Shown piece after piece: positions 1 through 50,825 of a DNA stretch of 64,000 bases (the first letter of the stretch is position 1; every line of letters begins with the position of its first letter). The stretch lies in NCBI RefSeq assembly GCF_032854445.1, contig NC_088305.1:24895400-24959399 (forward strand), written 5' to 3'. The notes under the pieces are model-generated. The model was given only the letters and a program-made list of their open reading frames with translations, was not told where the DNA came from and did not search any database. Source of the stretch: Liolophura sinensis. Its lineage: Eukaryota; Mollusca; Polyplacophora; Chitonida; Chitonidae. The translations under genes were made by a program, and so were the position numbers.

Positions 1-182
1 AATACTTAAGCTATCAGATGAATGAATGAATGGACGAATCCTTGGGGTTTGACGTCGTACTTAACAATATTTTTATATGACGAGGAGGCATTAGGCATGT
101 TTACATATATTATGCTGCCTCCACGTTCTAAGCACTAGGCCACCGAAACGGTCAAGCTGTCACACGAGTTCATAACGAAAGT
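1..182. repeat. Family B repeat fragment and downstream flank
   Basis: Bases 45-115 carry 'ttggggtttgacgtcgtact' and the decayed family B body, here internally deleted. The rest is the 3' flank of the EMI/Ig gene. Confidence 0.5.
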
Positions 183-22400: not shown

Positions 22401-25400
22401 GAAGACTTGAGTCTTTTGTCCTCCATGATTTCTGAACGTTCTGAAAAAGTCTATTGTCCTCCATGATTTCTGAACGTTCTGAGGACCTTGAGTTTTTTGT
22501 CCTCCATGATTTCTGAACGTTCTGAGGACTTGAGTCTATTGTCCTCCGTGATTTCTGAGCCTTCTGAAGACTTGGGTCTTTTGTCCTTCATGATTTCTGA
22601 ACGTTCTGAAGAAGATTATTGTCCTCCATGATTTCTGAACGTTCTGAGGACTTGAGTTCATTGTCCTCAGTGATTTCTGAACGTTCTGAAGACTTGAGTC
22701 TTTTGTTCTCCATGATTTCTGAACGTTTTGAGGAATTGAGTTTATTGCCCTCCATGATTTCTTAACTTTCTGAAGACTTGAGTCTATTGTCCTCCGTGAT
22801 TTCTGAACCTTCTGAAGACTTGAGTCTTTTGTCCTCCATGATTTCTGAACCTTCTGAAGAAGTCTATTGTCCTCCATCATTTCTGAACGTTCTGAAGACT
22901 TGAGTTTATTGTCCTCCATGATTTCTGAACGTTCTGAAGACTTGAGTATATTGTCCTCCGTGATTTCTGAGCCTTCTGAAGACTTGAGTCTTTTGTCCTT
23001 CATGATTTCTGAACGTTCTGAAGAAGATTATTTTCCTCCATGATTTCTGAACGTTCTGAAGACTTGAGTCTATTGTCCTCCATGATTTCTTAACGTTCTG
23101 AAGACTTGAGTTTATTGTCCGCCATGATTTCTTAACGTTCTGAAGAAGTCTATTGTCCTCCATGATTTCTGAACGTTCTGCAGATCTGAGTCTATTGTCC
23201 TCCATGATTTCTGAACCTTCTGAAGACTTGAGTTTATTGTCCTCAATGATTTCTTAACGTTCTGAAGACTTGAGTCTATTGTCCTTCGTGATTTCTGAAC
23301 CTTCTGCAGACTTGAGTCTTTTGTCCTCCATGATTTCTGAACGTTCTGCAGATCTGAGTCTATTGTCCTGCATGATTTCTGAACGTTCTGAAGACTTGAG
23401 TCTATTGCCCTCCATGATTTCTGAACCTTCTGAAGACTTGCGTCTATTGCCCTCCATGATTTCTGAACGTTCTGAAGACTTGAGTCTATTGTCCTTCATG
23501 ATTTCTGAACGTTCTGAAGATCTGAGTCTATTTTCCTCCATGATTTCTGAACGCTCTGAAGATCTGAATCTATTGTCCTCCATGATTCTATCCGCATATA
23601 CACTACCATTATGGAGTGATAGTGGTGGACGTACGCAATTACAGACCTTTGAAATTGTCTCATATGTTGTCGCAAAGCACGTTGCTTTTCCTCAGTTTAC
23701 ATATAGTGAATATATAACCAAATAACAAAAAAGTGGAAAAAACAATTAATTACAAAGATTGAATGGTAGTGGCCTCAGTACTTTTCGAAATCATCATTCT
23801 CACGAGCAGACTGACTCAGTTAAAATATGTCATAAGTAACAATAACTGTCAAATTCTGGTATACTAGTAAATGTATCTGTATTTATATGTTTGTTCTCCA
23901 GTTTATGTGAGGGGTGCTTCTTTAAAACTGCCTTGTCTCAAAACACGTTGGCTTAACTCAGTTTTTCTAAAGTGAATTAATAACGAAATAACAAAAACGT
24001 GGAAAAAATAATTAATTACAAAGATTGAATGGTAGTGGCCTTGGTACTTTTAGAAACCATCATTCTCACGAACAGACTGATTTAGTTAGACAGACTGATC
24101 ATAGCTGGCCATAACTGACAAATTCCGGTATACTTGTGAATGCATCTGTATTTGTTTATTTATTCCCCAGTTTATGTTAGAGGAGCTTCGTGTTTCAACG
24201 ATAGCAGTGCTGAATTCTGGGACTGCCTGATCACTCACTCTGTTGCTCGATATACCACCATGATTGAAGTGAATGCTACGAGAGACTGGGAGACATTCTA
24301 CGAGACGATTTGTCCGTAAGCACGCGTAGATACATAGCCAGCTGTCTTAATTTATTTACAGACGGTTGGCGTGTTAGTGCACAAATGCAGCACAATGATC
24401 TCCTCACCAATACGATCGTTGTGCGTTCAAACCTATGTAATGCTGGTTTCCTCTCCGGTCTTATGGGGGAAGGCTTTCCAACGACATGCAGATGGTCTTG
24501 AATTTCCCTCGCTCTCTGCCCGATTGCCTCCCACTATAATGCTGGCCGCCTTCGCATGACTGTATAGTGAAATATTCTCGTGTACGTCGCGGAACGCCAA
24601 TCCAATAAATAAATAACTAAATAAATCCAGATTACATTCAGATAAGACAGATCAATGTTCTATCCACAGGTGTTGAAAGACAACAGTAAACCTGTTCAGT
24701 GTACATTTAAATTCCTCACAACCAAACCACCCCCTCCCCCACCCATACCACCCACCCCAAACGACACAAAGGTCAAAATGAAGTTATCTTATACCTTCTT
24801 CGGGTGACGGAGGTGGGGGTTGGGGTTGAGGGATAGGTGTTCTTGATTGTTTTGTATTTACGTCTCATGAAAGTTCCACAAGTTAGCTCCGCTAACTATA
24901 GACTAGAAATCTAGGGCCAGATTTAGAGAGCGTTTTCGTAAAGATGTGATATTCTCTCTGCGTCACAAACGTTTAGTTAAAAAATACTCCAGTGTCCAAA
25001 ATACTCCACCAAACGCTTTCATTCTGAGTTTTATAAATTCGGTCACAAGTATAACACTCTGACAAAAATAAGGACAGACCGTTGAAGACCTCTATATCAA
25101 AGCTGTATCAAATTCCGCTTTTATAAACAGTTAATGTAACAATAAAAAGGCAGCTGAGATACTTGTTTTGTGTTCGATCTGAAAATTTCTCACGGACCTC
25201 TGGTTTGAAAGTTGATTCGAATCACATGCCTATACTGTCAACTCTCTTCCTTGCATCACTGAAAAGTATCGACTGGATCTCACTCACATATGGCCTGCTT
25301 TATTTACTATCACTGTATTAACCCATTCATATTTCTTTGGTAACTGGTGTTGTTGTGGAAAGGATCTTACAATTATTGACTTAAACCCCGTATTTTGGGT

Positions 25401-29565: not shown

Positions 29566-29984
29566 TGTATTAGTCTAACTCCTTTGTATGTATGATAGAT
29601 CGCTTCACATCACGCCTGTGTCTTCCTGTGACCAGTGTCCACATCTTTTTAGTGCTGCCTCACTGGAACACTATGTCGCATCCAGCCACATTATACAGAC
29701 AACAGTCCATGATTTATTCTTCATACGGTGAGAACCAAACAAGGTAGTGATAACCCAGAAAGGTAGCGATAACCTCAACAGAGTTTAAAATTCCACATGT
29801 CGGTATGCCTAGACTTGCAGTGGAACCCCGGAACCACCGGTTACAGTCGTGTTAGTTACACACAGCAGGTTATGTATGTTAGGAGATTTACTCGACTAAA
29901 ATTGGCTGAATTAACATACGGTCATTAGCAGACTACAGATGTATTTATTTGTCCTGCGGGTTTACTCATACATTGAAGACTACA

Positions 29985-30050
29985 TCATAGAGGGCAAAAT
30001 GTTGGCGAATGGCCACACGTTTTACCCGTGCAGTACGACCTCATGCAGTA
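29985..30050 (+). repeat. Family D fragment
   Basis: 'atagagggcaaaatgttggc' and 'cacacgttttacc' align with the start of family D. Confidence 0.4.
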
Positions 30051-30069
30051 AGGGTCTTTTTTTTAACAG

Positions 30070-31330
30070 CAAGAAGATGTCTGACAGTAACTTATTAGCA
30101 ATTAAAAAGGACAAGTAATAAGATGTCTAACAGTAACTAATTAGCTATTAAAAAGGACAAGTGATAGGATGTTTGACAGTAGCTAATCAGGTATTAAAAA
30201 CAACAAGTAATAAGATGTCTGACAGTAACTAATTAGCTATTAAAAAGGACAAGTGATAGGATGTTTGACGGTAGCTAATTAGGTATTAAAAACAACAAGT
30301 AATAACATGTCTGACAGTAACTAATTAGCTATTAAAAAGGACAAGTGATAGGATGTTTGACAGTAGCTAATCAGGTGTTAAAAACAACAAGTAATAATAT
30401 GTCTGACAGTAACTAATTAGCAATTAAAATGGACAAGTGATAGGATGTTTGACAGTAGCTAATCAGGAATTAAAAAGAACAAGTAATAAGATGTCTGACA
30501 GTAACTAATTAGCTATTAAAATGAACAAGTGATAGGATGTTTAACAGTAGCTAATTAGCTATTAAAAACAACAAATAATAAGATGTCTGACAGTAACTAA
30601 TTAGCTATTAAAAAAGAACAAGTGATAGGATGTTTGACAGTTAGCTATTAAAAAGGACAAGTGATAAGATGTCTGACAGCAGCTAATCAGGTAATAAAAA
30701 GAACAAGTAATAAGATGTCCGACAGTAACTAATTAGCTATTGAAAAGGACAAATAATAAGATGCCTTACAGTAACTAGTTACCTACTAAAAAGAACAAGT
30801 GATAAAATTTCTTACAGTAACTAATTAGCTATTAAAAAGAACAAGTAATAAGACGCCGGACAGTAACTAATTAGCTATTGGAAAGAACAAGTAATGAGAT
30901 GCCTGACAGTAACTAATTAGCTATTAGAAAGAACAAGTAATAAGATGCCTGACAGTAACTAATTAGCTATTAAAAAGAACAAGTGATAGGATGTTTGACA
31001 GTAACTAATTAGCTATTAAAAAGAACAAAAAATAAGATGCCTGACAGTAACTAATTAGCTATTGAAAGGGACAAGTAATGAGATGCTTTACCGTAACTAG
31101 TTACCTACTAAAAAGAACAAGTGATAAGATTTCTTACAGTAACTAATTAGCTACTAAAAAGAACAAGTGATAAGATTTCTTACAGTAACTAATTAGCTAC
31201 TAAAAATAACAAGTGATAAGATTTCTTACAGTAACTAATTAGCTACTAAAAAGAACAAGTGATAAGATTTCTTACAGTGACTAATTATCTTTTGGAAAGT
31301 ATAAGTATTAAGATGTCTGACAGTAACTAC
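30070..31330 (+). repeat. 46-bp AT-rich tandem array
   Basis: About 27 units of 'aagatgtctgacagtaacta' plus 'attagctattaaaaagaacaagtaat'. It sits about 100 bp past the stop codon of the clusterin-like gene, so its transcript 3' end may lie within or before the array. Confidence 0.9.
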
Positions 31331-31427
31331 AGAAAATTAAAAACTTTCTACCAGTTGGGACTACTTTCTAAACCGGGCAGAACTGGTAGTGAGATTTTAA
31401 GCTGGTTTTATGCGGTAAGCATGAAAC

Positions 31428-31607
31428 TTATTTTACCAGCTCTTCAAACAGGAGTTGTGAAATGACTGGGATAGCGGCGACAGGGTTTGTCGGATTAACC
31501 GGATCCTTCATGGTGACCACGTAGGAGGTTCTTAGGAGAGAGTATCCTACACGGACAGCGTTGTATCCTAAGGATTCAGCATTATACTGGGACGGGTCAA
31601 ACTGGAT
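31428..31607 (-). CDS. Exon 6 (last) of the clusterin-like gene
   Basis: Acceptor CATTTTTTCAG; 59 codons and TAA. Encodes YNAVRVGYSLLRTSYVVTM, an NP-rich loop and a closing helix ending FEELVK. The strand, loop and closing-helix order recalls the clusterin C-terminus. Confidence 0.65.
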   Translation of the reverse strand: MQFDPSQYNAESLGYNAVRVGYSLLRTSYVVTMKDPVNPTNPVAAIPVISQLLFEELVK

Positions 31608-34600
31608 CTGAAAAAATGAATCGATTGATTGATTGAGTGAATGATTGGCTGACTGGATGAGGTCATATTTACGTAAAAGATAGGGAAATACCTGTTGATA
31701 TTTAAACCAGAATAACCCACTTGTACACACATAGTTTCACACGATATTCTCCCTTGTCTAAAGAAATACGTACTAGGGAAATTTACATCGGACAGCTGCC
31801 TACCAGTGCGCATGTTACTTGACATAATAGTCTCCCCTGTCTGTAAGAGTAAGTAACAAGGATTTTCTATCGATATTGAAGCAAGGCCAAGACCTACTTG
31901 AGCAAACATATTATTATATCCTGAACAGATCAACAGGTCACATTCCCTCAACAAGCTGGGAAGTTCTCATCTATATGTAAATGAGGCTATGACCTACTTG
32001 TGCACACAAAACTCAGCTTATCAGTATTCTCTCCTGAATGGATGGGACTTGAGTTATCAAATGCTGGAGAAAATCACTGAACAAGAAATGGATAAAACGA
32101 TCACCCCAATGAACGAAATAGTCGGATGATTAAATGGGTAAATGAGTGAATGAATTTGCCTCTGAAAAAGTTTGTTAACAAGAACAAACCCAAAACAAGA
32201 CATCCGATTTACATTAGTGGTCTGATGTCATTTTTCAGTGTATTTATTTGTGCCTTTGTAGCAAAAACAATGTTAACATTTGCTGTTGGAAGAATTAGGA
32301 AGAATTTTGTGTATAATAACCACGTTCTTGAAAGTGTTCTTAAAAAGCTTCTCAGAAAAGGATTCCTGCTTCGCGTGCTTAATTGAAACAATCTCGTTCA
32401 TTCCCTCCTGTTAGAGGCATTGAAATAAGGAGCTACGGTTCTGTTGTTCAATTGTTGTTTAAGTCCATGAAAAGTTCCAACGCAACGATTATCTTCAGGC
32501 AGTATTCACATCTATTTTAAATGTTTCTGGATAAGAGTTGTATGTTGTTTGAGTCTAAATGGACTGTTGGATATTCAGTACTTACAGAAGTGATACTGAA
32601 GACACTGGAATTAGTGATATCAAATATTTCTTCCAATCTGATAAGCCTTTCCTCTTTAGCTTGCAAGCTGCTGAAAATGGCTGTCACATCTTTGCCGCAC
32701 ACTGAAACGAATAAATACGTTTAATAAATAATTTATTTATTTGCTGGTGTTTTACGCAATATTCAAGAATATTTCACTTAACGCCTGTAATTAATAAAAA
32801 TTTATTCTGTTACGCGATGGGAGTCAGTTTTATGAGTAGAGGAAACCGGAAGGTCCGCGATAAACCCCCGCTGCTCAGCCAGGAACTTGATAAACCTCGT
32901 CGTAAACCAGCGATTTTCGGCAAATTATTCACGAACTTCACTAGATCACGAATCGCGTTCAAACGGTGCGATTTGTCGTCTGGAGTTGTTGAATTTTCTC
33001 TCGTAGCACGCAAAACTATTTGTGCCTTTTGACAGTTGAAGTGAACAAATTGCATCGGGTAAGGCTTCTCACAGAAACCTGTGGTCCACTGATCATTTAT
33101 TTCGAAGTCTAAATTATGTCTCCGAGCCCCATAATAGTTTTAACAGTGTAATAAATACTTAGAGATTGTTTCACCTGCATAACAATTTTGACTTACCGTT
33201 CTCAAGTAACACCAGTTCGTCAGGTTCATCCATTCCGGAACAGACAGAACACTGCGCCGCGTAGACCAGACAAGCTGTTTCTCCATTGCTTTCCAGGTCC
33301 TCACAACTAGGATCTGCCGACTGGCGCTTCCGTCGACCCCATCCCCTTCGGAAGCGGATTCTTGGCAAACGGATTCGAGGCGTCCGGATTCGGATTCGTG
33401 GCAAACGGACTCTTGGCAACCTAATCCGCGGCAACCTGACTCTCGGCAACCGGATTCTCGGCAATCTAATTCTCGGAAGCCTTATCCGGGGAAGTGAGAC
33501 TCTGCGTAGACGTATTCCCCCTGTAGTTTAACAAGTGAGTGAGTGAGCGCTTGAACGTAGTACTTAACAAATTTTCAGTCATATGACGACAAAGAAATCC
33601 TTAAAGTGGATGTAATGTGCCTCCTTGTTGCAGGACGGATTTTCACCGTTCTTTTATCTAGTGCTGCTTCACTGAGACGCCTTACTGAAGGCAAGTAAGC
33701 TGCCCCACTCGAATCATTATACTGTAACGGTTCAACCAGTCGTTCCACTATCCCTTTCATGCTCAACGCCAAGCGAAGAAGTTACAACTTCCTCTCTTAA
33801 AGTCTTCGGTGTGACTCGACCCAGAATTGACTCTGGATCTACCGCTCCCGAAGCGGACGGTTTAACAAGTAAAACACAGCATTGGATTTAGTAATAAACA
33901 ATAGAGGTGGGTATCCGTGGGTGTTTGTGCAATACGACCGACGAAGAATTTATTAAATTTAAAAAAAAGCTGTGATATAGTAATGCCCTACCAATAGTGA
34001 GTCTCCGTACTAGTTGGAAAGAAAAGGAATAAATATACTACCGTACTATTTTTATAAACGGTACTGACCACTGATCATCCCAAGATACTGAACTCGATAT
34101 TGGGTGCTTTCATTGATGATGAAAAGACACAAGGAATGCTCAAGGATTGAATGACTGAATTAAATTAATATGAAGTCCAATTTACTGGCTGCTTTTTACA
34201 AAGTTGGTAACAAAATCTGAAGAAAAAAACCCCTACCTCTATCTTATACTCCGCAAACATCGCTGACTACAGAGGTCAAAGTTTACTAACAATCAGAATG
34301 GCTAGTTCAATATATCAAAGAACCAAAAAGCCGCTGTCGTATAAGTGAAATACTCTTCAGTACGGCGTAAAACACCAATCAAGTAAATAAATAGATAAAG
34401 AAAGAAAGAAAGAAATATCTTTCCACATACAGCCAGAGAGAAAGCCAACATGAGCTGAACATGAACTCAGAGCAACCGCATTGGTGAGAGGCTCCTTGGT
34501 CATTGCGTTGCGCTGGCACGCTAACCACCTATGCAAGGAGGCCCATCAAGCCTTGTACAGTTAAATGAAGGTTATTTGTAACATTCAGCCAATAAAACGA

Positions 34601-36961
34601 AAAGATAAAATATCTTACCAAGTATGTTCTTGAGACCATTTTTGATTTTGTCTCCAGTTTTCTTCACAAGTTCTGCAGCCTTCTTCACCACATTTATAAC
34701 CTTACAAGCCGTAGGAGAGGCTTGGCATGGCAATTTCTTCATGTCTACATGCACGGAGCATTCATGGGCCCTGTAACGATATAATTATCAGGTTTTGGTT
34801 GACATATTATTTAACTACCAAATGACTGATTAAATATTATATTTTCAATTCAATTAATACGAACGCCATTTACTTCTGGTATTTCTGGACATTTAGAATT
34901 AATTGTTGGTCGCCTTTTCTTCCACTGGGTACAGAAGCCTGAAAATCAATCTAATAAGTCACAAAACAATTTTTGACCCCAAGAAAAGCAATTGCCAAAT
35001 CTGGCAGAATGAAACAACAACGTTTATATACGTTTTCAAGTATAGAAATACGGTTAAAGTTTGAGATGGTGGAGAACCCTTGTACCAAAGTACCAAGAAA
35101 TCATCCTGACAAAGCCGTAGCAGAAAAAGGAGGCGTTTGAATTGAAAATGTGTCCAAGGACAGTCGCAAGGTTTTTTTTTTCGATTTTTAAGTTTGATCA
35201 TTAGAAAAAAACACATTTTGATTTATTTGATTTGATTTGATTTATTTGATTTGATTTGATTTATTTGATTTGATTTGATTTATGTGATTGGTATTTTACG
35301 CCGGCTCCTGGGTCAATACGGTGCGCTATAGCGCGCTAACCAACTGAGCCACAGAGGCCCCTACCACATTTTGATGTATCAAGATTAGATTTGTTCATTT
35401 CCCGCTTCCTGCAGTCAGAGTTTTTCTTTTTTTAAAGCAGGTCGCCAGCCTCCCCCCTCCCACCCTCCAAAATTTATTTATTTATGTGATTGGTGTTTTA
35501 CACAGCACTCAAGAATATTTCACTTATACGACGGCGGCCAGCATTATGGTGGGAGGAAACTGGGCACAGCCCCGAGGAAACCCAAGACGATCCGCAGGTG
35601 CTGACAGGCCTTCCCACACATAGCTGGAGAGGAAGCCAGTATGTGCTGGGCTTGAACTCATAGCGACCGCATTGGTCATTATGCTGCGCCAGCGACAACT
35701 GAGCCACGCCCCCTCCCCCTCCAAAAAGAATAAAAGTTCCAGAAAACGAGATCAGGTTGGAGTTTTTCTTTTTTTATTTAGGCAGATGAAAAAAAGAAAA
35801 ACTTTAAGAAAAAGATATAGGATTGGGCCTTTTTTATCTGCTTAAAATAAAAAATCCACCCCGATCTCTTTTTCTGGACATTTTTCCTTTTTGGAGGGAG
35901 AGGTAGGGGTGGGGGCACCTGCTTAAAAAAAGAAAAACTCCGTCTGCAAAAGTGGAAAAAAACAAAAACGTACAGTTAAAAAAAGAGAAACACGCCATGT
36001 CCCTTTCACTCCGTAATATCCGTTTTACGTGTTAGTTGTTGTGGGGAACTCCAGTACATTTTAGTCTTTGACTTGACGCCTGTAACGTAATTATTGACAT
36101 TCTCCATAGCCCACGTTATACATTCACACAGTGTTCCGACAGTTAAGCTAGACGTCAGGCTCCTACCGTCTTTATGGTGGTCCCATAGTCTTTGTGGTGT
36201 TCTTTTTGTGCATGAGAAAAGCACGGGTCCATTAACTCGTACCATATTATTTAAAATCAAGTACGTATAGCTTCAGAAATTTATGTAGGAGAAGTACCAA
36301 CATCGAATGACCCGCTGTCTGTAGTAAAAAAAAATTATGCCCAAGCATAACGTCGTATAATACTTGATTTTTTTTTTCTTGCATGGTTTTATTGAGCTTG
36401 CAATAAAGCTATAAACGGACACACTGCCTTCGTTGTCTAGGAGGTTAGCGCGCCTGCTCGGCTCAGTGACTCAGGAGCCTCTCACAAATGCGGCCGCCGC
36501 GAGTTCAAGTCCAGCTCATACTGACTTCCTCTCCGGCCGTGCCTGGGAAGGTCTGCCAGCAACCTGGTCGTGGGTTTCCCCCGGGCTCCGCTTGGTTTCC
36601 TCCCTCCATAATGCTGGCTGCCGTCGTATAAGTGAAATATTCTTGAGTACAGCGTAAAACACTAATCTTATAAATAAATAAAGGGACCCAAACCATGGTG
36701 TCAGACAATTATCCATTATGCATCACACATGTGGATATTTTGTGTCCTACACTATGTCATTGGTCACAGTCCTTGATGCCTGTAACTCTTCTAATTAAGA
36801 GCTGTGACCACTTACACACTGGACTGAGAGGTTTTAGTTTTGATTTAGTTTATTGACACAGACATTATAGTGAACAATGCATCTTTGTAAAATATTTATT
36901 TGATTAGTGTTTTACACCATTATTATTATTATTATTGTTGTTGTTCTTCTTCTTCTTCTTC

Positions 36962-37017
<56 letters not shown>

Positions 37018-39025
37018 ACCCTGCCATGCGGAGTATTTTTTAATACATCTAAGGAGGTAGGATAGATTCTATTCCACGTGAACTTCCTGGGTGTATATAT
37101 ACACGACTGCGCACAAATCGGAGAATGTGCTGACAGGACTCATAATATGCAGCTTTCAACACTTTTGTCCGGTTTCGGGAGGCATACTACCCCACGGACT
37201 GAACCGCCTGAAGGCTGACTGGCTAACCCAGTGTAAGTGACAAGTGGGATAACGGACTAGGCTACTCACTCTTCTGTGGTAAAATTTCAGAGAAATCTGG
37301 ACAGTCCAACGAGATCATTTATATTTTTTGCGTGAATTTTGCCGATATTAGCGATCGATCTGACAATTTAACGTGCTCGATGTAACCGTCACTGTCAAGC
37401 GGTGATTGTCGGAGAAGATGTCAACACTGAGGTTTATTAGCCCACTTCCTGATTGACCCGAGATAATTCAGTAGTCGTCAATCGGTCAGTTCATCAGAGG
37501 CCGATTTCACGAAGCCATTTCCGACTTAATTCGAAATTTGATATACGATCTTAAAGCTTATTTTTCGGCTTTATAAATTAAAGTTGGGTCCACCTCATCA
37601 GTGTTATCTTAAAATTTAAATTTCAGCTTTGAAAAGCAAAGCTCTGTGAATTGGATTTAAATTTTGACTCAAGTTAGAAATGGCTTGGTGGCCCCATATC
37701 CCTAGCACATTGCCTGACTTAAAGCAGCAGCGGGGCCTCCGTGGCTAGCGCAGCGTAAAGACCCAGGAGCCTCTCATCAATGCGGTAGCTGTGAGTTCAA
37801 GTCCAGCTTCCTCGCCGACCGTAAGTGGGAAGGTCTGCCGATGGTCGTGTGTTTCCCCCCGGGCTGTGCCCGTTTTCCTCCCACCATAATGCTGACCACC
37901 GTCGTATAAGTGAAATATTCTTGAGTACGGCGTAAAACGCCAATCAAATAAATAAACAAAAATAAAGCCGCAGCAGAATGACTGGCTATACATGTATAAC
38001 TCACTTGATCTGGCAATTTTCGTTGATGCAATTCCCACATTGCTCATGTCTTCTTGAGACCAGGTCAGTGCATACTTTGAACTGGTCGTTTAGATTACTT
38101 ATCGTCTTGTTCACCGCAACAAAGTCGTTTTGAATCAAAATCTCAAGCTGGGACGCCACTTCCGGCGCAAGCACTAAAAAAAAAAAAAAAAAAAGACAGA
38201 AATGAAGGAAAACAATGTTTCTTTCTTTATTGGACATGTGCTCTTTTTTGTTGAAACAATTAAACTTACACACTGTTTGTGGCATTATTCAGCTCATCGA
38301 TCGTGAAAAACCAATCGCTTTCATATTTATGTATTTATGTTTTTCTTAGTTACTAGACAACTTGGTTCGAACAGTTTTGACATGGTTTGTCCTAAATCCC
38401 AAAGCTGTGGGTTTCGGGCTAATCGATGCAGTACACGGCTGAGGGCGGTCCTGGCAGCCGCTAAGGTCTGTTATCAGGTACATGTACCTGATAAACAACT
38501 TGCATCATAACAAGCGGCAAGAGCTGGATTCGAACTCGCAACACCACTGACTGAGGGCTGAACGGCTGTGTTGAGAACAACGCCTTAATGGAATAAGTCA
38601 GCGAAAACTTCACGGTATAGATTAAGAAAGACTGACAACAGTGAAATAAACTAAAATTATCGGTAAATAATTGATAAAAACTACAAATTAAAAGAACAAA
38701 ACCAAAACACCATAACCATATCAAATAAAACGATCAAAGAGCGAATCAAACACCTTATTGCATTTCACATGTTTTTTTTTCCGTGTTTATTTAAACCAAT
38801 GATTGAAATTCATAAATCAGTGTATCAAGCCTCGACTTATCCGGAATATACGGAAAATAGAACTCCAAAAAACAAAGACACAAATAAAACTGAGAAAATA
38901 TAGTAAACATTATGTTATCTTTAAAATGTCAGCTACTTACCACCCAAAGTAAAAGAGTTCAGTTCTATATATTGTCCACGAACGTTTGCTAAGAAAGCAA
39001 AGAGCAAAATCTTCGCAGCCTTCAT
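31428..39025 (-). CDS. Clusterin-like secreted two-chain precursor (six exons)
   Basis: Exons 38941-39025, 38005-38173, 34619-34770, 33197-33520, 32586-32701 and 31428-31607 give 341 residues; all five GT-AG introns match in phase (1, 2, 1, 1, 0). Signal peptide MKAAKILLFAFLANVRG; short helical region; five cysteines at 63, 74, 77, 82, 89 (gaps 10, 2, 4, 6); C100 and C107; Lys-rich amphipathic segment 108-136; nine Pro-Arg pentapeptides; furin site RRKR 198-201; five cysteines at 208, 219, 226, 229, 245 (gaps 10, 6, 2, 15); coiled-coil-like stretch; C-terminal about 60 residues. Human clusterin has gaps 10, 2, 4, 7 and 9, 6, 2, 7 in its two chains with a furin-type site between, and pairs them antiparallel. 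The chaperone function is inferred. The family call rests on this architecture alone. Confidence 0.65.
31608..32585. other. Intron 5 of the clusterin-like gene
   Basis: AT-rich, with a 'gattgattgattga' run near 31622. The open frames at 32150-32391 show no domain. Confidence 0.45.
32586..32701 (-). CDS. Exon 5 of the clusterin-like gene
   Basis: Acceptor CGTTTCAG, donor T|GTAAGT. Encodes VCGKDVTAIFSSLQAKEE and RLIRLEEIFDITNSS: the fifth alpha-chain Cys, a likely helix and a glycosylation sequon. Confidence 0.65.
32727..32900 (-). mobile_element. SINE family A, strongly diverged, inverted
   Basis: 'ttatttgctggtgttttacg', 'tattcaagaatatttcactt' and 'agaggaaaccgga' are recognisable. Lies in intron 4 of the clusterin-like gene. 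Confidence 0.55.
33197..33520 (-). CDS. Exon 4 of the clusterin-like gene (Pro-Arg repeats, furin site, alpha-chain cysteines)
   Basis: Acceptor CTACAG, donor G|GTAAGT. Begins GIRLRRVS, then LPRIR/LPRVR pentapeptides (15-bp units), FRRGWGRRKR, and CEDLESNGETACLVYAAQC with SVC. The repeat is an in-frame minisatellite inside a coding exon. Confidence 0.7.
33528..33865 (+). repeat. Family B, long copy
   Basis: 'agtgagtgagtgagcgcttg', 'tcagtcatatgacgacaaag', 'cttcactgagacgccttact', 'tcggtgtgactcgaccc' and the end 'accgctcccgaagcggacg'. Lies in intron 3, about 10 bp from exon 4 of the clusterin-like gene. Confidence 0.75.
34328..34415 (+). mobile_element. SINE family A tail fragment
   Basis: 'gtcgtataagtgaaatactc' and 'gtaaaacaccaatcaagtaa', with a GAAA-rich tail. 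Confidence 0.7.
34425..34546 (-). mobile_element. SINE family A head fragment, inverted
   Basis: 'accgcattggtgagaggctc' and 'cgctggcacgctaaccacct'; abuts the tail fragment on its left, in opposite orientation. Confidence 0.65.
34619..34770 (-). CDS. Exon 3 of the clusterin-like gene (cationic amphipathic segment)
   Basis: Acceptor TTACAG, donor G|GTAAGA. Encodes AHECSVHVDMKKLPC, then CKVINVVKKAAELVKK and TGDKIKNGLKNILG. Hydrophobic residues recur every three to four positions among lysines, as in membrane-active helices. Confidence 0.65.
35216..35362 (-). mobile_element. Internally deleted SINE A with expanded ATTTG tail
   Basis: 'tgattggtattttacgcc' is followed directly by the head end 'gcgctaaccaactgagccac'. 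The tail has expanded to about 65 bases of gatttattt-type repeats. Confidence 0.7.
35405..35955. mobile_element. Palindromic MITE-like element with nested SINE
   Basis: Ends are inverted repeats: 'gcagtcagagtttttctttt' at the left and the complement of 'gaaaaactccgtctgc' at the right, continuing about 60 bp. A second, inner inverted repeat spans 35718-35905. No transposase is present. A SINE A (35474-35712) interrupts it. Confidence 0.55.
35474..35712 (-). mobile_element. SINE family A, inverted, inside the MITE-like element
   Basis: Reversed tail 'gattggtgttttacacagca', full core, and head 'gcgacaactgagccacg'. Confidence 0.8.
36429..36682 (+). mobile_element. SINE family A, full length
   Basis: 'cgttgtctaggaggttagcg', 'gcgagttcaagtccagctca', 'gtgggtttcccccgggctcc', with an AAATAAA tail. 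Confidence 0.85.
36920..37015 (+). repeat. ATT/TTG/TTC microsatellite
   Basis: Runs of attatt, then ttgttg, then ttcttc, then about 55 bases of attatt. Confidence 0.95.
37733..37967 (+). mobile_element. SINE family A, full length with short head deletion
   Basis: 'gggcctccgtggctagcgca', core 'gtgtgtttccccccgggctg', tail 'cgtaaaacgccaatcaaata'. Ends about 40 bp from exon 2 of the clusterin-like gene. Confidence 0.85.
38005..38173 (-). CDS. Exon 2 of the clusterin-like gene (beta-chain cysteines)
   Basis: Preceded by an unbroken T tract of about 18 bases and TAG; donor AA|GTGAGT. Encodes LAPEVASQLEILIQ, sequon NKT, VCTDLVSRRHEQCGNC and INENCQIK: the C-x10-C-x2-C-x4-C part of the clusterin-like pattern. 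Confidence 0.7.
38174..38940. other. Intron 1 of the clusterin-like gene (copy A splicing)
   Basis: AT-rich, no repeat family recognised except a poly-A run of about 18 bases that forms the polypyrimidine tract of exon 2 on the minus strand. Confidence 0.5.
38941..39025 (-). CDS. Exon 1 copy A of the clusterin-like gene
   Basis: ATG at 39025, signal peptide MKAAKILLFAFLANVRG then QYIELNSFTLG, donor G|GTAAGT. Nearest of three identical-peptide copies to exon 2. Its upstream sequence departs from copies B and C right after 'actctgca', and no TATA box is seen there. Confidence 0.65.
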
Positions 39026-40084
39026 TGTGACGTCTCACCGAAGTACTCTGCAGAAATATCATGAAAAATAAAGAAAAGTTTTTTGAGATATGTCCTTGAA
39101 TGGTTATTGCGTTGACACCTTTATAACGAGGTAAATCTGTATCACTTATTCCCGCCATCCTCAGTTTTGTGCATGGGAGTTAAATACGTAGCCATATATG
39201 GAACATGAGACTTGAGTGCCTGTTGACCTCTTGTGCCTGAAACTCGAATACCTGGTGCTACATTGTGAATAAGATCCGATTTCATATTGAACTCTTGTCT
39301 ATGAGGCTCGGTTCCTCGACAATATACTTTGCATCAGATAGACTGCCAGATCCTATATGTATCAGCAGAAGTTTTAACTAATGTAAATATAAGTGTCATG
39401 TCCGACATTCATATACCATTCGTAGTCCGTAAAGGGCGTTCCAAGTCGATAAACAAACGTTTAACACTAGCTCCCATAGACAAAGGTATGTAAGAAGTTA
39501 TACAAATAAGAAATAAAGCCGGTAACACACAAGAGAGAAGCGGTCATCAGTTTTCAATGATGCCGGGCACACAGTGGATATTCCAGGCATGATCTTCCAT
39601 ATCAAAGTTCAAATTCGTAGTCCAGGAATGAGTTCCAGATCGTATGGTAATCATCTACCATATTTCCTCTGCAACAATTTGGACTGTAAGATACCGCGTC
39701 CAGGAACAGACTGTTGTATCTTGTTCAAAGACACTGGATTATGGTAGCTCAATTTGTACCTACGTTAATCTTTCAACATTACCATGCTTTCGTTAAAACA
39801 TTAATCTAAATTAAAGAAAAGAATTCTATCAAAGGGATGCAATTGGGCATTGTGAAAGATTATTTTTTAATTTAAATACATAAACATTACAATATATTCT
39901 CATCACGATTACAGAGACAAGGTTTGCTTGCAAGTGCTGTATTACCCTAGGAAAGATAATATATTACATTAAAATATTTTTATTGCAACAGAAATATCAT
40001 GAAAAATAAAGAAAAGTTTTTTGAGATATGTCCTTGAATGGTTATTGCGTTGACACCTTTATAACGAGGTAAATCTGTATCCCT

Positions 40085-40395
40085 TATTCCCGCCAGCATT
40101 ATAGGAGTTTACTTGGCCAGGAACCATTTGTATCCCTGATTCCCGCCAACATTTTAGGAGTTTACATGACTAGGAACCATATGTGTCCCTGATTCCCGCC
40201 AGCATTATAGGAGTTTACTTGGCCAGGAACCATTTGTATCCCTGATTCCCGCCAACATTTTAGGAGTTTACTTGACCAGGAAACATCTGTATCCCTGATT
40301 CCCGCCAACATTTTAGGAGTTTACATGACTAGGAACCATATGTGTCCATGATTCCCGCCAACATTTTAGAAGTTTACTTGACCAGGAAACATCTG
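40085..40395 (+). repeat. About 53-bp array, copy 1
   Basis: Unit 'gattcccgccaacattttag' then 'gagtttacttgaccaggaaac'; about six units alternating two subtypes. Confidence 0.85.
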
Positions 40396-40506
40396 TATAC
40401 GGAATACGGAAATATACGGAAAATAGAACTCCAAAAAACAAAGACACAAATAAAACTGAGAAAATATAGTAAACATTATCTTATCTTTAAAATGTCAGCT
40501 ACTTAC

Positions 40507-40591
40507 CACCCAAAGTAAAAGAGTTCAGTTCTATATATTGTCCACGAACGTTTGCTAAGAAAGCAAAGAGCAAAATCTTCGCAGCCTTCAT
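40507..40591 (-). CDS. Exon 1 copy B, alternative first exon of the clusterin-like gene
   Basis: Same 28-codon signal-peptide exon and G|GTAAGT donor as copy A, but with a TATA box 50 bp upstream. It can splice in phase to the acceptor at 38173. Copy A would be skipped or, through a CTGCAG acceptor-like site upstream of A, included out of frame. Confidence 0.55.
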
Positions 40592-40640
40592 TGTGACGTC
40601 TCACCGAAGTACTCTGCAAGTATTGGGCACCAGCAAAGCC

Positions 40641-40700
40641 CTTTATATAGTGCATCAACAAACGGCTAATCGTGCGGTTAAAAGAGTTAAAGCACACGTG
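40641..40700 (-). promoter_or_regulatory. TATA promoter of exon 1 copy B
   Basis: CTATATAAAG at 40641-40650 on the minus strand, 50 bp from the ATG, with an E-box CACGTG at 40695-40700. A CRE-like GACGTCAC lies just before the ATG in all three exon copies. Confidence 0.5.
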
Positions 40701-40884
40701 AGAATCGTGGTTGAAAGCTGCCGTGTTCAATTTCACTTTATTGTATTTCTTACAGATAGTATGCAGATCCCGGATGTCCCCACTCCCGGATGTGATCGCA
40801 CCAGTTCACGTAAACCGGTTTCTTGGCACACACCCAGCACATAAATAAGCCAGTAAACTGATTTGATGGCAATATTACGCCAAA

Positions 40885-41010
40885 GTCCTCTTCGGTCGTA
40901 CATGGGAAGGCCTTCTAGCAACCTGTAGATCGTTGTGGGCTTCACCCGAGCTCTGCTCTGTTTGCTCCCACCATGATGGCCGATCAATTAAATAAATAAA
41001 TAAATAAATC
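40885..41010 (+). mobile_element. SINE family A fragment (copy at 47650-47772)
   Basis: 'ctcttcggtcgtacatggga' to 'ctcccaccatgatggcc' with an AAATAAAT tail; the part between core and tail is deleted. Confidence 0.7.
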
Positions 41011-41442
41011 TTACGCCAAAATAATAAATATGTCACCTATACGACTATACGACTATATATTCAAAAGGCTACCTCGTAAACGGGAGATCCTCGACGAATT
41101 CCCGAATGGAGGGTTAAAACTGGAACATTAGAAGAATTAATTTCATTAAGGCATTGAGGAGCTACAAATTCAACCTTTCACTCTCAAAAAAATCAAGGCC
41201 AACATAACGTTCCTTACATAACATTTCCATAACATTTGTCTCCTTTCAAAGTTTTTTATTTGCACGATCTTAATTTCTGCTCTAATATGCTCATTTGCAT
41301 ACTGTTCCAGATTTATCTACGAACAAGTTACCGCTTGTGCGGTGCAAAGTGTCAACGCAACGCTCAAAAACTTTTGCATTAGGTGTTGAAACCAAATGCG
41401 ACCATGCTTTGTCTCACAGGCTTTCTCTTTCCCTCATACATT

Positions 41443-41495
41443 GTCTATTTATTTGATTGGTGTTTACGCCTTACTAAAGAATATTTCACTTGTAA
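41443..41495 (-). mobile_element. SINE family A tail fragment (copy at 48204-48255)
   Basis: 'atttatttgattggtgttta' and 'aaagaatatttcacttgt'. Confidence 0.55.
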
Positions 41496-42439
41496 GGGTG
41501 CCACTATCGGATAGTAAAGATGAGAAACACCTGGCTTGTTTAACGCTCAAATCAGGGATAGGCCTAACACAAGATCAAACAAAGAAACACGAATACGCTT
41601 GAATAAGTTCAATACATATATTTGAACAATGAAATACGGATGGAATATTCCGGCTTAGAAAGGCGAGTCAGTCCACGTAAATATAGAACCCACAGTCAAT
41701 CTACGGATGACAGTTCGATAATTGGTGTATTACCCCTGGTATTGTCTGCTATCAAATAAACTTGAGTAAATGACCGCGAGCTTCACAACTCCGTCGGTCG
41801 TCTTTATAGACTAACCTAAAAGAAAATACTGGATGGTTTGATCGTAAACATGTTTACAACATTGATACATATTTCCAGAATGTACACTCTATGTACGATG
41901 ACACCTGTAAATGTGTCTACTTGCCCTGCAGTGAAGTACAACCACAAATCAGTTTGGCGTGGGACAAAATGAGTGTAACTCGGAACATTAGAACTGTGTT
42001 ATACTGTGAATTGAATTGAATGTTTATTCACCATACGTAAATATATGAATAATTACATATCTCGTAAATGGTGGGAATAAAGTCAAAGGGACTTGTTCTA
42101 TCCTTGACTCATTATTATCAAATAATAATACTACATGCTTGGTGAGGAACGATAATTATTGAACAATTGTATTAACAAAAAACAAATTTACTTGGGAAAA
42201 AATGAACATAGAAATGTAACACTACAAAAACCTAAGTTAACAATAGTTAACAATAGTGTGAATAATATTTTGTGTGACACATTCTGTCTCGTAGATTGTA
42301 TGACTAATGTGGATCAAATATTGTTAATTAAAAAATCTTTTAACCTGAATTAGAATAAAGAAATCGACACTCGGATTTCCCTGGTCCGTAGGAGTTGGCA
42401 TATTTGCGATTTAGTCTTCGCACCTGGCTAGACGCTCAA

Positions 42440-42640
42440 CATAAGTGGAATATCGGCCAGGTACTGGTGGGCACGGATTGCAATGTGACTTAATGAGGTG
42501 TCGGGTTTGGTGTCTTCGGTATGGCATTCTGGTGAGTCAGATCTATGAGTATGTCGGCATTGGGTCCAGCCTCCCACGTGGACACACCGTCCTAATATGA
42601 CCGAAATAATGTTGTTAGCGACGTTACATCCCAATCCACC
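42440..42640 (+). repeat. Family C, diverged (copy at 49195-49395)
   Basis: 'gtgtcgggtttggtgtcttc', 'ggcattctggtgagtcaga' and 'ccgtcctaatatgaccga'. Confidence 0.5.
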
Positions 42641-43247
42641 AAACTTCTATATTAAAGGTTTGTTTTCTACAACATGAATGGCGAGACCAGACGACTCTGT
42701 TTGTTATCCCTGGGAATATTAGATTATTCCCATCGCCACGATATGGGTAAAATATTGCCGATGTGGCATTAAACTACAGTTCATTCCTTTTTCCCTTCCT
42801 GTAGAAGTTAGCACTTCATACAAATCGAAATCCCGCCGAATTCCTATTACATAATAACTAAACTGGCCTGGTAAAACCAAAAGGCAAATCCGCGCATCTG
42901 GACTGAAGATTATTTTACACTCTTAAAATAATAATCTTATGGAAAGTATCCAGTTCAGTAATTTCATGGTAGAGGCTTTTTGTCATTAGACCTTGTGGAA
43001 AGAAATATTTCATATTTTGGAAATAAATTAAGAACAATTGCACAGGAAAATTTGGTTGATTCTTCAACGCGGAATACGTTTCGTATTCCTTATTACTCCC
43101 TTATTTCTGTTGGTTACAGTTGTAAGGATAGTAGAATTAAGTATAAGATATGTTATATATATATGCCTTATAAGGCCAATTAGCCGGATGTAATGTAGGA
43201 CTATATATATTGTGTTCTATTGACACCTGCTATTTTCCAGCTTATGC

Positions 43248-43350
43248 CGACTTCCTCTCCGGTCTTATGTGAGAAGGTCTTGCAGCAACCTTCGGATTGT
43301 CTGGGGTTTTGCCCGAGCAGTTTTTGGTTTCCTCCCAGCATAAAGCTACT
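43248..43350 (+). mobile_element. SINE family A core fragment (copy at 49988-50090)
   Basis: 'gacttcctctccggtcttat', 'gcagcaaccttcggattg' and 'tttcctcccagcataa'. Confidence 0.65.
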
Positions 43351-43751
43351 AAAGATGCTGTTTTCTTGGTTGAGTTCAGGATTGTTCCTAGCCTTCTTAT
43401 ACACGTTTGTCGTCCATTGACATTTTGAAGAGATGAAACATTCTGAATTGTAGTTAAAGTTGTTGGCACAAAAGCTAATATGTTTGGTTACATGATGAAA
43501 CTAAATTTCTATCGCGTTGATACGTTGCCGGTGTACTCGACTCACAGTTCTCAGTATATGTTTATTCTAGAGCGTTTTACTGCATGGCAATCGTCTATAT
43601 CCATTGTAGACAATAACAATGTCATACGTGAGAATTACCAAGGTTAGTATGTCTGGTCTTGTTTTTTTCTCCAGAAACTAGCGAGGAAGCCCCTAACTTA
43701 TCCGGGAGTGAGTGAGCGCGTTTTCAAATGCTTGAAATGTCTTACCGTTGC

Positions 43752-44509
43752 GCTCTTAGCTGTAACGTCTTGAAAGCTTCGCCGCTTTACCGACAGTGAA
43801 AAATTTTACCAGCATGTATTTGAGAATGACTTATGAATATTCATCTCTCTTTCATCCTTGTGGGTGAGGAAACAGTGTATAGGCCCACGGGGTTCTGCTG
43901 ACGTAAACCACTGTCCTCTATTTGACAATATGCCTTTAGAAATAAAAAAAAGTACCACAAAAATGCATGCAGACAAAACAGGATGTTTTGTATTCTTACC
44001 GCAACTCGGTGGAAGCTGATTGGCTCTGACGTAGCTTAACCCCAATACCTGCTCCTGCTTTCTGCTAAAAAATACAAATCACAAGGACACATCCTTCTGT
44101 TCAAGCAGCTCAAAGTCTTCATAAAACATAGGGAATTGGTTCTCATCAAATGGTTTCCCTTACGACTCTCGACCGTCCCTTTTCTTCAAACCTTCCTATT
44201 TAAGGACTCTGACTGTGACCATGATGGCTGTGGTTCTATCCGTGGTTGCAAAAAAGGAAGACGGTAATTGATTAATCACTGGAGGCTCAGATTAATCATC
44301 GTATTTAGATTATAACACTAAAATAATGTTGGAAGTTTAATGATAAAATTTATGAAAAGGGTGATAAAAAATCACATCCCCGTGTTCAGACAAACTTAGT
44401 TTAATACTATTTTTTTCTTTTTTCTCTGTATTAGGGTTTAGCTCAAGCTATAAATGAAACCGTTTCTCCGGTGTAAGGAAAGGTGATGCTTGTCACGTTG
44501 GAGTTTGTC
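43752..44509. other. Unique spacer after duplication copy 1
   Basis: No exon recognised; the open frame at 43806-44045 (minus) shows no domain. Confidence 0.35.
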
Positions 44510-46799: not shown

Positions 46800-47165
46800 C
46801 CCGCCAGCATTATAGGAGTTTACTTGACCAGGAAACATGTGTATCCCTGATTCCCGCCAACATTTTAGGGGTTTACATGACTAGGAACCATATGTGTCCC
46901 TGATTCCCGCCAACATTTTAGGAGTTTACTTGACCAGGAAACATCTGTATCCCTGATTCCCGCCAACATTTTAGGAAATTACATGACTAGGAACCATATG
47001 TGTCCCTGATTCCCGCCAACATTTTAGGAGTTTACTTGACCAGGAAACATCTGTATCCCTGATTCCCGCCAACATTTTAGGGGTTTACATGACTAGGAAC
47101 CATATGTGTCCCTGATTCCCGCCAACATTTTAGGAGTTTACTTGACCAGGAAACATCTGTATACG
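46800..47165 (+). repeat. About 53-bp array, copy 2
   Basis: Same unit as 40085-40395 with about one more unit. Confidence 0.85.
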
Positions 47166-47270
47166 GAATACGGAAATATACGGAAAATAGAACTCCAAAA
47201 AACAAAGACACAAATAAAACTGAGAAAATATAGTAAACATTATCTTATCTTTAAAATGTCAGCTACTTAC

Positions 47271-47355
47271 CACCCAAAGTAAAAGAGTTCAGTTCTATAT
47301 ATTGTCCACGAACGTTTGCTAAGAAAGCAAAGAGCAAAATCTTCGCAGCCTTCAT
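47271..47355 (-). CDS. Exon 1 copy C, distal alternative first exon of the clusterin-like gene
   Basis: Encodes the same signal peptide and keeps ATG and donor G|GTAAGT. It lies 9.1 kb from exon 2. A transcript from here would need to cross copies B and A. Confidence 0.5.
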
Positions 47356-47403
47356 TGTGACGTCTCACCGAAGTACTCTGCAAGTTTGGGCACCAGCAAA
47401 GCC

Positions 47404-47413
47404 CTTTATATAG
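47404..47413 (-). promoter_or_regulatory. TATA box of exon 1 copy C
   Basis: CTATATAAAG, about 50 bp upstream of the ATG, as in copy B. Confidence 0.5.
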
Positions 47414-50400: not shown

Positions 50401-50488
50401 TCTTGTTTTTTGCTCCAGAAACTAGCGAGGAAGCCCCTAACTTATCCGGGAGTGAGTGAGCGTGTTTTCAAATGCTTGAAATGTCTTA

Positions 50489-50825
50489 CCTTTGCGAGTG
50501 AGCGCTTGGGGTTCAACGTCGTGCTTAACAATTTTTAAGCCATATGACGACAAAGGAATCCTTACAGTGCATGCAATGTGCCTCCTTGTTGCAGGGGGGA
50601 TTTCCACTGCTCTTTTATCTAGTGCTGCTTCACTGAGATGCCTTACCGAAGACAAGTAAGCTGCCCCGCCCGAGCCATTATACTAATACGGGTCAACCAG
50701 TCGTTGCAATATCCCCTTCATGCTAAACGCCAAGCGATAAAGTTAAAACTCCCTCTTTTAAGATCTTAGATGAGACTCGACTTAGGACTGACCTTGGATC
50801 TACGCCCTATTAAGTGTGCTATCGG
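50489..50825 (+). repeat. Family B, long copy
   Basis: 'gcgcttggggttcaacgtcg', 'catatgacgacaaaggaatc' and 'ttcactgagatgccttaccg'. Sits at the edge of duplication copy 2. Confidence 0.75.

What the first reader, a model, noticed from the sequence alone, without database searches (positions are those of the whole stretch)
31428..39025. A clusterin (apolipoprotein J)-like gene in what looks like a mollusc
Seen: six exons in perfect phase encode a secreted precursor with five cysteines (gaps 10, 2, 4, 6), a furin site RRKR, and five more cysteines (gaps 10, 6, 2, 15). Known: human clusterin has cysteines 102, 113, 116, 121, 129 and 285, 295, 302, 305, 313 (gaps 10, 2, 4, 7 and 9, 6, 2, 7), is cut by a furin-like protease between them, and pairs the two groups antiparallel. 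Inferred: same family, and so perhaps an extracellular chaperone. Clusterin is known mainly from vertebrates, so an invertebrate member with this architecture would push the family back.
Basis: partly seen in the sequence, partly recalled or inferred. Interest (0 to 1): 0.88.

Follow-up and report, generated by a model that had tools for sequence, protein, structure and literature searches.

The report
Clusterin-like gene family, probable mollusc
An invertebrate, probably a mollusc, carries a family of secreted two-chain proteins built on much the same cysteine, cutting-site and sugar-site plan as vertebrate clusterin, a protein that mops up misfolded proteins and lipids, which suggests clusterin may be far older than vertebrates.

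Summary
The gene is real: six exons (minus strand, AG/GT borders) encode a 341-aa precursor. It has 12 cysteines, not 10. Exon 1 exists three times and only the distal copies have a TATA box, so transcription probably starts near 40.6 or 47.4 kb.

It belongs to a family: 19 C-terminal-exon loci on one contig and a Mytilus relative. Seven models share cysteine gaps 10/11-2-4-6..8 and 9/10-6-2-15..19, a furin site and a sequon 13 residues before the first cysteine. Human clusterin has 10-2-4-7 and 9-6-2-7.

Formal membership fails: no Pfam hit for the window protein; two of four paralogs hit PF01093 below cutoff (E 0.021, 0.034); a PDB profile search misses clusterin. Profile comparison favours distant homology (P 0.0021 and 0.019, one hit per cluster; 1 of 300 cysteine-fixed shuffles matches both).

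Paralogs E, F and G carry a 108-147-aa amphipathic helix where this gene has a short helix plus an Arg-rich RIRLP array. Best reading: a distant clusterin homologue with exchangeable binding tails. Fold, disulfides and expression are untested.

The parts
47404..47412 (-). TATA box (TATATAAAG) of the outermost exon-1 copy
   Evidence: 57 bp before ATG; same element in paralogs A (L009) and C (L010)
47271..47355 (-). exon 1, outermost copy (identical peptide), possible first exon
40641..40649 (-). TATA box of the middle exon-1 copy, probable promoter
   Evidence: 58 bp before ATG
40507..40591 (-). exon 1, middle copy, probable functional first exon
38005..38173 (-). exon 2: helix, sequon N50, Cys 63, 74, 77, 82
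   Evidence: matched in paralogs
34619..34770 (-). exon 3: Cys 89, extra pair Cys 100 and 107, 28-aa amphipathic helix
33197..33520 (-). exon 4: RIRLP array, furin site RRKR, Cys 208, 219, 226, 229
33345..33520 (-). Arg-rich RIRLP array (aa 136-194), with a second furin-like site RLRR (aa 139-142) at its start
33324..33335 (-). furin site RRKR (aa 198-201)
32586..32701 (-). exon 5: Cys 245, helix, sequon N274
31428..31607 (-). exon 6: C-terminal beta/alpha region and stop
   Evidence: matched in paralogs

Best explanation
The gene encodes a secreted precursor that most likely descends from the same ancestor as vertebrate clusterin. Inferred working: the signal peptide sends it to the ER; the five beta-chain cysteines pair antiparallel with the five alpha-chain cysteines to form a small disulfide domain, the extra pair C100-C107 closes a local loop, and N50 and N274 are glycosylated; furin cuts at RRKR so that the beta chain ends in a free tail. 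That tail (a short amphipathic helix plus an Arg-rich RIRLP array here; a 108-147-residue amphipathic helix in paralogs E, F, G) is the working part. It binds lipids, anionic microbial surfaces or exposed hydrophobic protein, while the coiled-coil and C-terminal beta domain hold it. Shown: exon structure, cysteine plan, sites, tails, family size. Inferred: disulfide pairing, cleavage, fold and every function.
For: Gene model. Family: 15 C-terminal-exon matches at 18.22-18.41 Mb plus 4 at 24.86-26.98 Mb of contig C11. Cysteine plan and furin-like site in models W, A, C, D, E, F, G; sequon 13 before C1 in 7 of 7, sequon before the C-terminal domain in 6 of 7. Both helical arms are shorter than human by a similar amount (signal end, set by eye, to C1: 45 against 79 residues; last alpha Cys to the next sequon: 29 against 61; positions), as expected if they pair in one bundle. 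HMM of 105 clusterins finds both cysteine clusters of the array-less window protein in order; 0 of 5000 plain and 0 of 5000 gap shuffles do as well, 19 of 5000 with cysteines fixed. Profile-profile best P went from 0.085 (window alone) to 0.003 and 0.24 (5 models) to 0.0021 and 0.019 (7 models), one hit per cluster; column shuffles that match both: 0 of 300, and 1 of 300 with cysteine columns fixed. PF01093 appears in a Pfam scan of paralogs E (E 0.021) and F (E 0.034, residues 53-309 on profile 57-303). Tail helices: 0 of 300 shuffles as amphipathic for E, F, G, periodicity 98.4-99.4 degrees; F hits PF01442 Apolipoprotein at 1.2e-4, 22.3 bits against a cutoff of 90.
Against: Window protein: no Pfam hit, no PDB hit to clusterin. 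Profile of 6 members against PDB does not list clusterin at E up to 10. Whole-protein score of the clusterin HMM is ordinary (503 of 5000 shuffles reach it). Most of the five-model profile signal is cysteine spacing: 479 of 5250 cysteine-fixed shuffles reach the median real clusterin score, and 4 of 300 cysteine-fixed column shuffles reach the best single-hit score. Adding the Mytilus sequence to the window protein did not help (P 0.10). With tails cut out only 1 of 6 members still hits PF01093, at E 0.18, and in full-length E and F several other families score above it. The comparison of A9 with 14 clusterins gave one hit only, the beta cluster. The clusterin HMM put the alpha cluster in register in 5 of 5 members tried (W, D, E, F, G) but the beta cluster only in W and F; in D its alpha segment also hit the beta cluster. 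Last alpha gap 15-19 against 7; no alpha-tail or helix alpha7. AF2 models of the Mytilus relative are poor (pLDDT 44 and 47).
Confidence: 0.62

Rival explanations
1. Convergence: an invertebrate-specific family of disulfide-linked two-chain secreted proteins that resembles clusterin only because two CxxC-bearing five-cysteine clusters around a furin site are an easy way to join two chains.
For: No significant Pfam or PDB match; most of the score is cysteine spacing; last alpha gap differs; alpha7 and alpha-tail absent.
Against: Gaps near 10-2-4 and 9-6-2 recur in divergent paralogs; signal rises as paralogs are added; 1 of 300 cysteine-fixed column shuffles matches both clusters as well; sequon positions are similar.
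Confidence: 0.28
2. Antimicrobial precursor: furin-type enzymes cut at both RLRR142 and RRKR201 and release the cysteine-free RIRLP array as a free proline-arginine-rich peptide that acts on microbes; the clusterin-like body is a carrier. (Compatible with homology, so the odds overlap.)
For: RLRR at the start of the array in W, A and C; array is 24 Arg of 59 residues and amphipathic in an extended state (mean moment 0.851 at 160 degrees against 0.244 at 100); similar arrays occur in other secreted-looking proteins, some behind an acidic stretch (P0003, P0005, P0007 by eye).
Against: Array is absent in E, F and G and short in D, so it is not the family's common function; other RIRLP proteins may share only low-complexity composition; no activity data.
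Confidence: 0.3
3. Extracellular matrix, egg or shell matrix proteins rather than lipid or chaperone factors; the charged tail binds polyanions such as acidic matrix proteins.
For: Arg-rich low-complexity tails are compatible with polyanion binding (inference; composition).
Against: Amphipathic apolipoprotein-like helices in E, F and G are better suited to lipid.
Confidence: 0.1
4. Not a gene: fortuitous open frames or a dead duplicate.
For: Proximal exon 1 lacks the TATA box; dN/dS among the three young copies is only 0.42-0.75, based on 17 to 22 differences per pair.
Against: Copies A and C are intact with AG and GT borders; divergent paralogs keep the 12 cysteines and, as I read them by hand, the exon phases in D and E; Mytilus relative.
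Confidence: 0.03

Closest known systems
Vertebrate clusterin (apolipoprotein J, CLU; PF01093; PDB 7zet/7zeu)
   Same: Signal peptide, five-cysteine clusters with gaps 10-2-4-7 and 9-6-2-7 (here 10-2-4-6 and 10-6-2-15), furin site between them, a sequon near the end of the helix before C1 and another shortly before the C-terminal domain, a low-complexity tail at the cut.
   Different: No Pfam hit in the window protein; helical arms shorter (45 against 79 residues before C1); last alpha gap longer; extra conserved cysteine pair in the beta chain; alpha-tail and helix alpha7 absent; Arg-rich tail instead of the Phe-biased tails described for 242 clusterins.
Exchangeable apolipoproteins (PF01442) and apolipophorin-III (PF07464)
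   Same: Paralogs E, F and G carry long amphipathic helices with a period near 11 residues in three turns; F matches PF01442 at E 1.2e-4, E matches PF07464 at 0.008, both below cutoff.
   Different: Here the helix is one segment inside a protein with the clusterin-like cysteine plan, and it is 28 residues long in the window gene.
Mytilus trossulus uncharacterized protein LOC134709380 (P0002)
   Same: RIRLP-type array, GWGKKR site, C-x2-C-x15-C-G as in the window protein, a sequon before the C-terminal part (read); 0 of 3000 full shuffles and 5 of 3000 site-fixed shuffles reach its family score.
   Different: 199-aa record without signal peptide or beta-chain cysteines, perhaps a truncated gene model; its cysteines before the CxxC are spaced differently.

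Membership tests
Clusterin (PF01093) | Pfam profile match above the curated cutoff | tested here: not met
   Window protein: no hit at E up to 10; paralogs E 14.3 and F 13.6 bits against 23.6, D and G none; tails removed, 1 of 6 at E 0.18; human clusterin control 527.9 bits
Clusterin (PF01093) | Two five-cysteine clusters, first seven of eight gaps within one residue of human | tested here: met
   Window 10-2-4-6 and 10-6-2 against 10-2-4-7 and 9-6-2; the other six models within one residue as well
Clusterin (PF01093) | Last alpha gap of 7 | tested here: not met
   15 in the window protein, 15 to 19 in the seven models
Clusterin (PF01093) | Furin-type cleavage site between the clusters | tested here: met
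   RRKR at aa 198-201; furin-like site in all seven models; cleavage itself not tested
Clusterin (PF01093) | Secretory signal and N-glycosylation sites | tested here: inconclusive
   Hydrophobic N-terminus judged by eye, no predictor available; two sequons, N50 and N274, against six in human
Clusterin (PF01093) | Five inter-chain antiparallel disulfides | not testable with these tools
   Needs mass spectrometry or a structure
Clusterin (PF01093) | Three-domain fold: coiled coil, disulfide domain, alpha/beta roll | tested here: inconclusive
   Only the Mytilus relative was folded; pLDDT 44 and 47; no fold search was run on these
Clusterin (PF01093) | Alpha-tail and amphipathic helix alpha7 after the furin site | tested here: not met
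   6 residues between furin site and first alpha cysteine in W, A, C, D and 7 in E against 57 in human
Clusterin (PF01093) | Profile-profile similarity beyond cysteine spacing | tested here: inconclusive
   P 0.0021 and 0.019, one hit per cluster; cysteine-fixed column shuffles: 4 of 300 reach the best hit, 1 of 300 both; no PDB profile hit
Exchangeable apolipoproteins (PF01442) | Pfam match above cutoff over the helical repeats | tested here: not met
   Paralog F 22.3 bits against 90, paralog G 12.5 bits, E and D none; window protein none

The most novel reading that the evidence does not exclude
Clusterin is not a vertebrate invention: the family was already present in the common ancestor of molluscs and vertebrates, and in this lineage it radiated into at least 19 loci on one contig in which a constant disulfide scaffold carries exchangeable working tails, an apolipoprotein-type 11-residue helix in one branch and a furin-excisable Arg-rich RIRLP array in another.
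Probability: 0.5. Interest if true: 0.85.

Novelty: new variant of a known kind. Interest (0 to 1): 0.72.

Why it matters
A 2025 structural paper still calls clusterin a 'conserved vertebrate secretory glycoprotein' (PMC12527946, passage). A protostome branch would date the family to early bilaterians and show which features are ancestral (disulfide domain, furin cut, two sequons) and which are vertebrate additions (Phe-biased tails, helix alpha7). The tails of this family vary on one scaffold, a natural experiment on how clusterin tails work. Testing whether the invertebrate proteins hold misfolded clients or lipids would also show how animals without vertebrate plasma manage extracellular protein quality.

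Tried and rejected
Pfam, NCBIfam and PHROGs scans of the window protein gave nothing usable. Single-sequence PDB searches with the window protein and with paralog E gave only low-complexity, helical or chance hits. Of the 10 proteins, I kept P0002 as a relative and dropped the other nine, which share the RIRLP composition but not, as far as I read them, the cysteine plan; I suspected by eye known domains behind some arrays, but of the eight that I scanned Pfam listed only EF-hands (P0004) above a cutoff. A second protein search with the Mytilus C-terminus found only itself. The whole-genome PF01093 search found nothing, but neither did its 14 controls, so it says nothing about absence. AF2 of P0002 alone and with window exon rows gave poor models; I ran no fold search on them because the tool warns such matches are meaningless. 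MAFFT did not place the Mytilus cysteines as expected. The total clusterin-HMM score was rejected as evidence because 503 of 5000 shuffles reach it. dN/dS of the three young copies is uninformative. A plasmid search, tRNA and Rfam scans found nothing. Literature: searches showed in their listings no report of an invertebrate clusterin, but the listings are capped (for example 25 of 6,353, 20 of 729, 5 of 4,483 and 15 of 346 papers). Searches listed 15 of 16 and 8 of 8 papers that name clusterin with Mytilus or Crassostrea; in the one I looked into (PMC9892467, one passage) it was clusterin-associated protein 1, another protein. PMC8840921 on Aplysia and Alzheimer genes does not hold the word clusterin (term search only). 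No paper holds the RIRLP strings searched. The prefix search could also catch 'clustering'. The library holds open-licence papers only.
Full report
WHAT IS THERE. Six exons on the minus strand, with AG and GT at every inner border, join with intron phases 1-2-1-1-0 into a 341-residue precursor ending at 31428. Three points need correcting. The protein has 12 cysteines (63, 74, 77, 82, 89, 100, 107, 208, 219, 226, 229, 245). Exon 1 is present three times, ending at 39025, 40591 and 47355, because the upstream region is duplicated: 3.7 kb repeated at 97.7 percent identity in 40064-43752 and 46827-50496, plus a shorter copy. All three encode the same 28 residues. Finally, exon 4 begins with a 59-residue array with 24 Arg, 9 Pro, 9 Ile, 9 Leu, no Lys and no Cys, directly before the furin-site segment.

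A FAMILY, NOT A SINGLE GENE. The window lies in a 609-Mb genome of 632 contigs, at C11:24895400-24959399. Exon-by-exon search found two near copies (A, 24.860-24.868 Mb; C, 24.994-25.002 Mb), a divergent gene D at 26.96-26.98 Mb, a degenerate fragment at 27.364 Mb and a divergent gene at 18.316 Mb. A search with the last one found 15 C-terminal-exon matches between 18.22 and 18.41 Mb, which I sort by identity into eight E-type, six F-type and one G-type; with four that makes 19 loci, all on contig C11. These are exon matches and, by the tool's own note, lower bounds; I built models only for W, A, C, D, E, F and G. Pairwise identity of the divergent members with tails removed is 22-52 percent. 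Models D, E, F and G were spliced by hand; G lacks exon 1 and D has a 9.5-kb gap between exons 4 and 5.

WHAT IS CONSERVED. All seven models keep seven beta-chain and five alpha-chain cysteines, beta gaps 10 or 11, 2, 4, then 6 to 8, and alpha gaps 9 or 10, 6, 2, then 15 to 19 (for W, A, C, D, E; positions for F and G). Human clusterin has 10, 2, 4, 7 and 9, 6, 2, 7. E, F and G have 9, 6, 2 exactly. All seven keep a furin-like site between the groups and a glycosylation sequon exactly 13 residues before the first cysteine (human: 16 before). Six of seven (not F) keep a sequon just before what I take by eye as the first strand of the C-terminal domain, where human clusterin has N374 (index 352); the Mytilus protein has one there too (read). 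The helical arms are shorter than in human on both sides: 45 or 46 residues from signal peptide (end set by eye) to first cysteine in W, A, C, D, E against 79 in human, and, from positions, 29 against 61 between the last alpha cysteine and the next sequon in the window protein. In the human structure the helices of both chains form one coiled coil (PMC12527946, section on the crystal structure), so a matched shortening is what one would expect. That last step is inference.

HOW STRONG IS THE CLUSTERIN LINK. For: with both ends of each five-cysteine cluster fixed, 4 of 2300 beta and 220 of 7140 alpha arrangements fit human as well or better. An HMM of 105 clusterins (those of 400-480 residues among the 120 listed of 499 hits; the named ones are mammals and turtles, plus one filed under Salmonella) finds both clusters of the array-less window protein in order; 0 of 5000 plain shuffles, 0 of 5000 shuffles with new gaps inside the clusters and 19 of 5000 with cysteines fixed do as well (the criterion was set after seeing the hit). 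Profile-profile P went from 0.085 for the window protein alone, one hit, to 0.003 and 0.24 with five models and 0.0021 and 0.019 with seven, one hit per cluster (one search has a third, short hit at 0.093 outside this pattern). With realignment off the same two scores attach to the clusters in the other order, so I do not say which cluster carries which P. Of 300 column shuffles none reached the best hit or both hits; of 300 with the 12 cysteine columns fixed, 4 reached the best hit and 1 both. A Pfam scan of E, F, G and D listed Clusterin for E (E 0.021) and F (E 0.034, residues 53-309 on profile 57-303) among 24,736 families.

Against: the window protein, D and G have no Clusterin hit; E and F are below the curated cutoff, four families rank above Clusterin for E and eight for F; with the tails cut out only one of six members keeps the hit, at 0.18; the six-member profile does not find clusterin in the PDB at E up to 10; the comparison of A9 with 14 clusterins gave the beta cluster only (P 0.0028); adding the Mytilus sequence to the window protein gave P 0.10. 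The clusterin HMM aligned the alpha cluster in register in 5 of 5 members tried but the beta cluster only in W and F. 503 of 5000 shuffles reach the window protein's total HMM score, and 479 of 5250 cysteine-fixed shuffles reach the median score of real clusterins against the five-model profile, compared with 11 of 5250 full shuffles and 0 of 105 reversed sequences. So the signal is mainly the cysteine plan, with a weaker contribution from other residues. I hold distant homology as about twice as likely as convergence, and do not file the gene as a clusterin.

TAILS AND MECHANISM. Between the last beta-chain cysteine and the furin site each of the five divergent members has an amphipathic segment: 28 residues in W (before the array), 35 in D, 108 in E, 147 in F, 116 in G; mean moments beat all of 300 shuffles in W, E, F and G and 299 of 300 in D. 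In E, F and G the periodicity peaks at 98.4, 99.4 and 98.7 degrees, near the 11-residue, three-turn repeat of exchangeable apolipoproteins (recalled); in E the autocorrelation peaks at lag 11, and F matches PF01442 at 1.2e-4, below cutoff. In W, A and C the helix is followed by the RIRLP array. F's exon 4 starts GGIRLRRRR-S and W's GGIRLRRVSLPRIRLP, so the array may have grown out of the furin-site segment (inference from the sequences). In human clusterin two disordered, Phe-biased tails made by the furin cut are needed for chaperone activity, receptor binding and lipid particles, with His, Arg, Pro and Ser also over-represented and Lys and Cys rare (PMC12527946, passages, sections). The invertebrate tail sits at the same place in the chain, is rich in Arg, Ile, Leu and Pro, and has one Phe. 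I therefore propose a secreted disulfide-locked scaffold that presents a lipid-, surface- or client-binding tail. A second furin-like site, RLRR, lies at the start of the array in W, A and C, so release of a free cationic peptide is a serious alternative.

ORGANISM. No tool named the species. The only relative with a similar architecture that the searches returned is from Mytilus trossulus; I take 'mollusc' as probable.

Noticed in passing
40064-43752 and 46827-50496: 3.7-kb direct duplication, 97.7 percent identical, that copies promoter and exon 1 of the gene; with a partial copy at 39 kb it gives three possible first exons.
   Followed up: partly
G000:C11:18.22-18.41 Mb (L014, L027, L028, L029): Tandem cluster of E-type and F-type clusterin-like genes; five of the eight E-type terminal exons follow each other at 14.3 to 15.3 kb spacing (positions).
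   Followed up: partly
L013 (C11:27.364 Mb): Degenerate fragment, clearly matched only in exon 4, with a broken frame; looks like a dead copy.
   Followed up: partly
P0001, P0003, P0004, P0005, P0007: RIRLP-type Arg arrays recur in other secreted-looking proteins with different bodies (EF-hands in P0004, acidic stretches before the array in P0003, P0005 and P0007): perhaps a reusable cationic module.
   Followed up: partly
1789-2793 and 3677-3940, minus strand: Exon-like open frames with a weak immunoglobulin match (PF13927, E 7.6e-4, below cutoff) and a weak EMI match (PF07546, E 2.3e-4, below cutoff).
   Followed up: no
63489-63866, minus strand: DDE_3 transposase fragment (PF13358, E 6.7e-12).
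   Followed up: no
13485-15448, 21440-23587, 57155-59361, 29976-31419: Large tandem-repeat blocks; those at 13.5 kb and 57 kb hold open frames of 638 and 544 codons, probably only because their repeat length is a multiple of three.
   Followed up: no
P0116: A clusterin sequence recorded under Salmonella enterica, 58 percent identical to human; probably host contamination in a public assembly.
   Followed up: no
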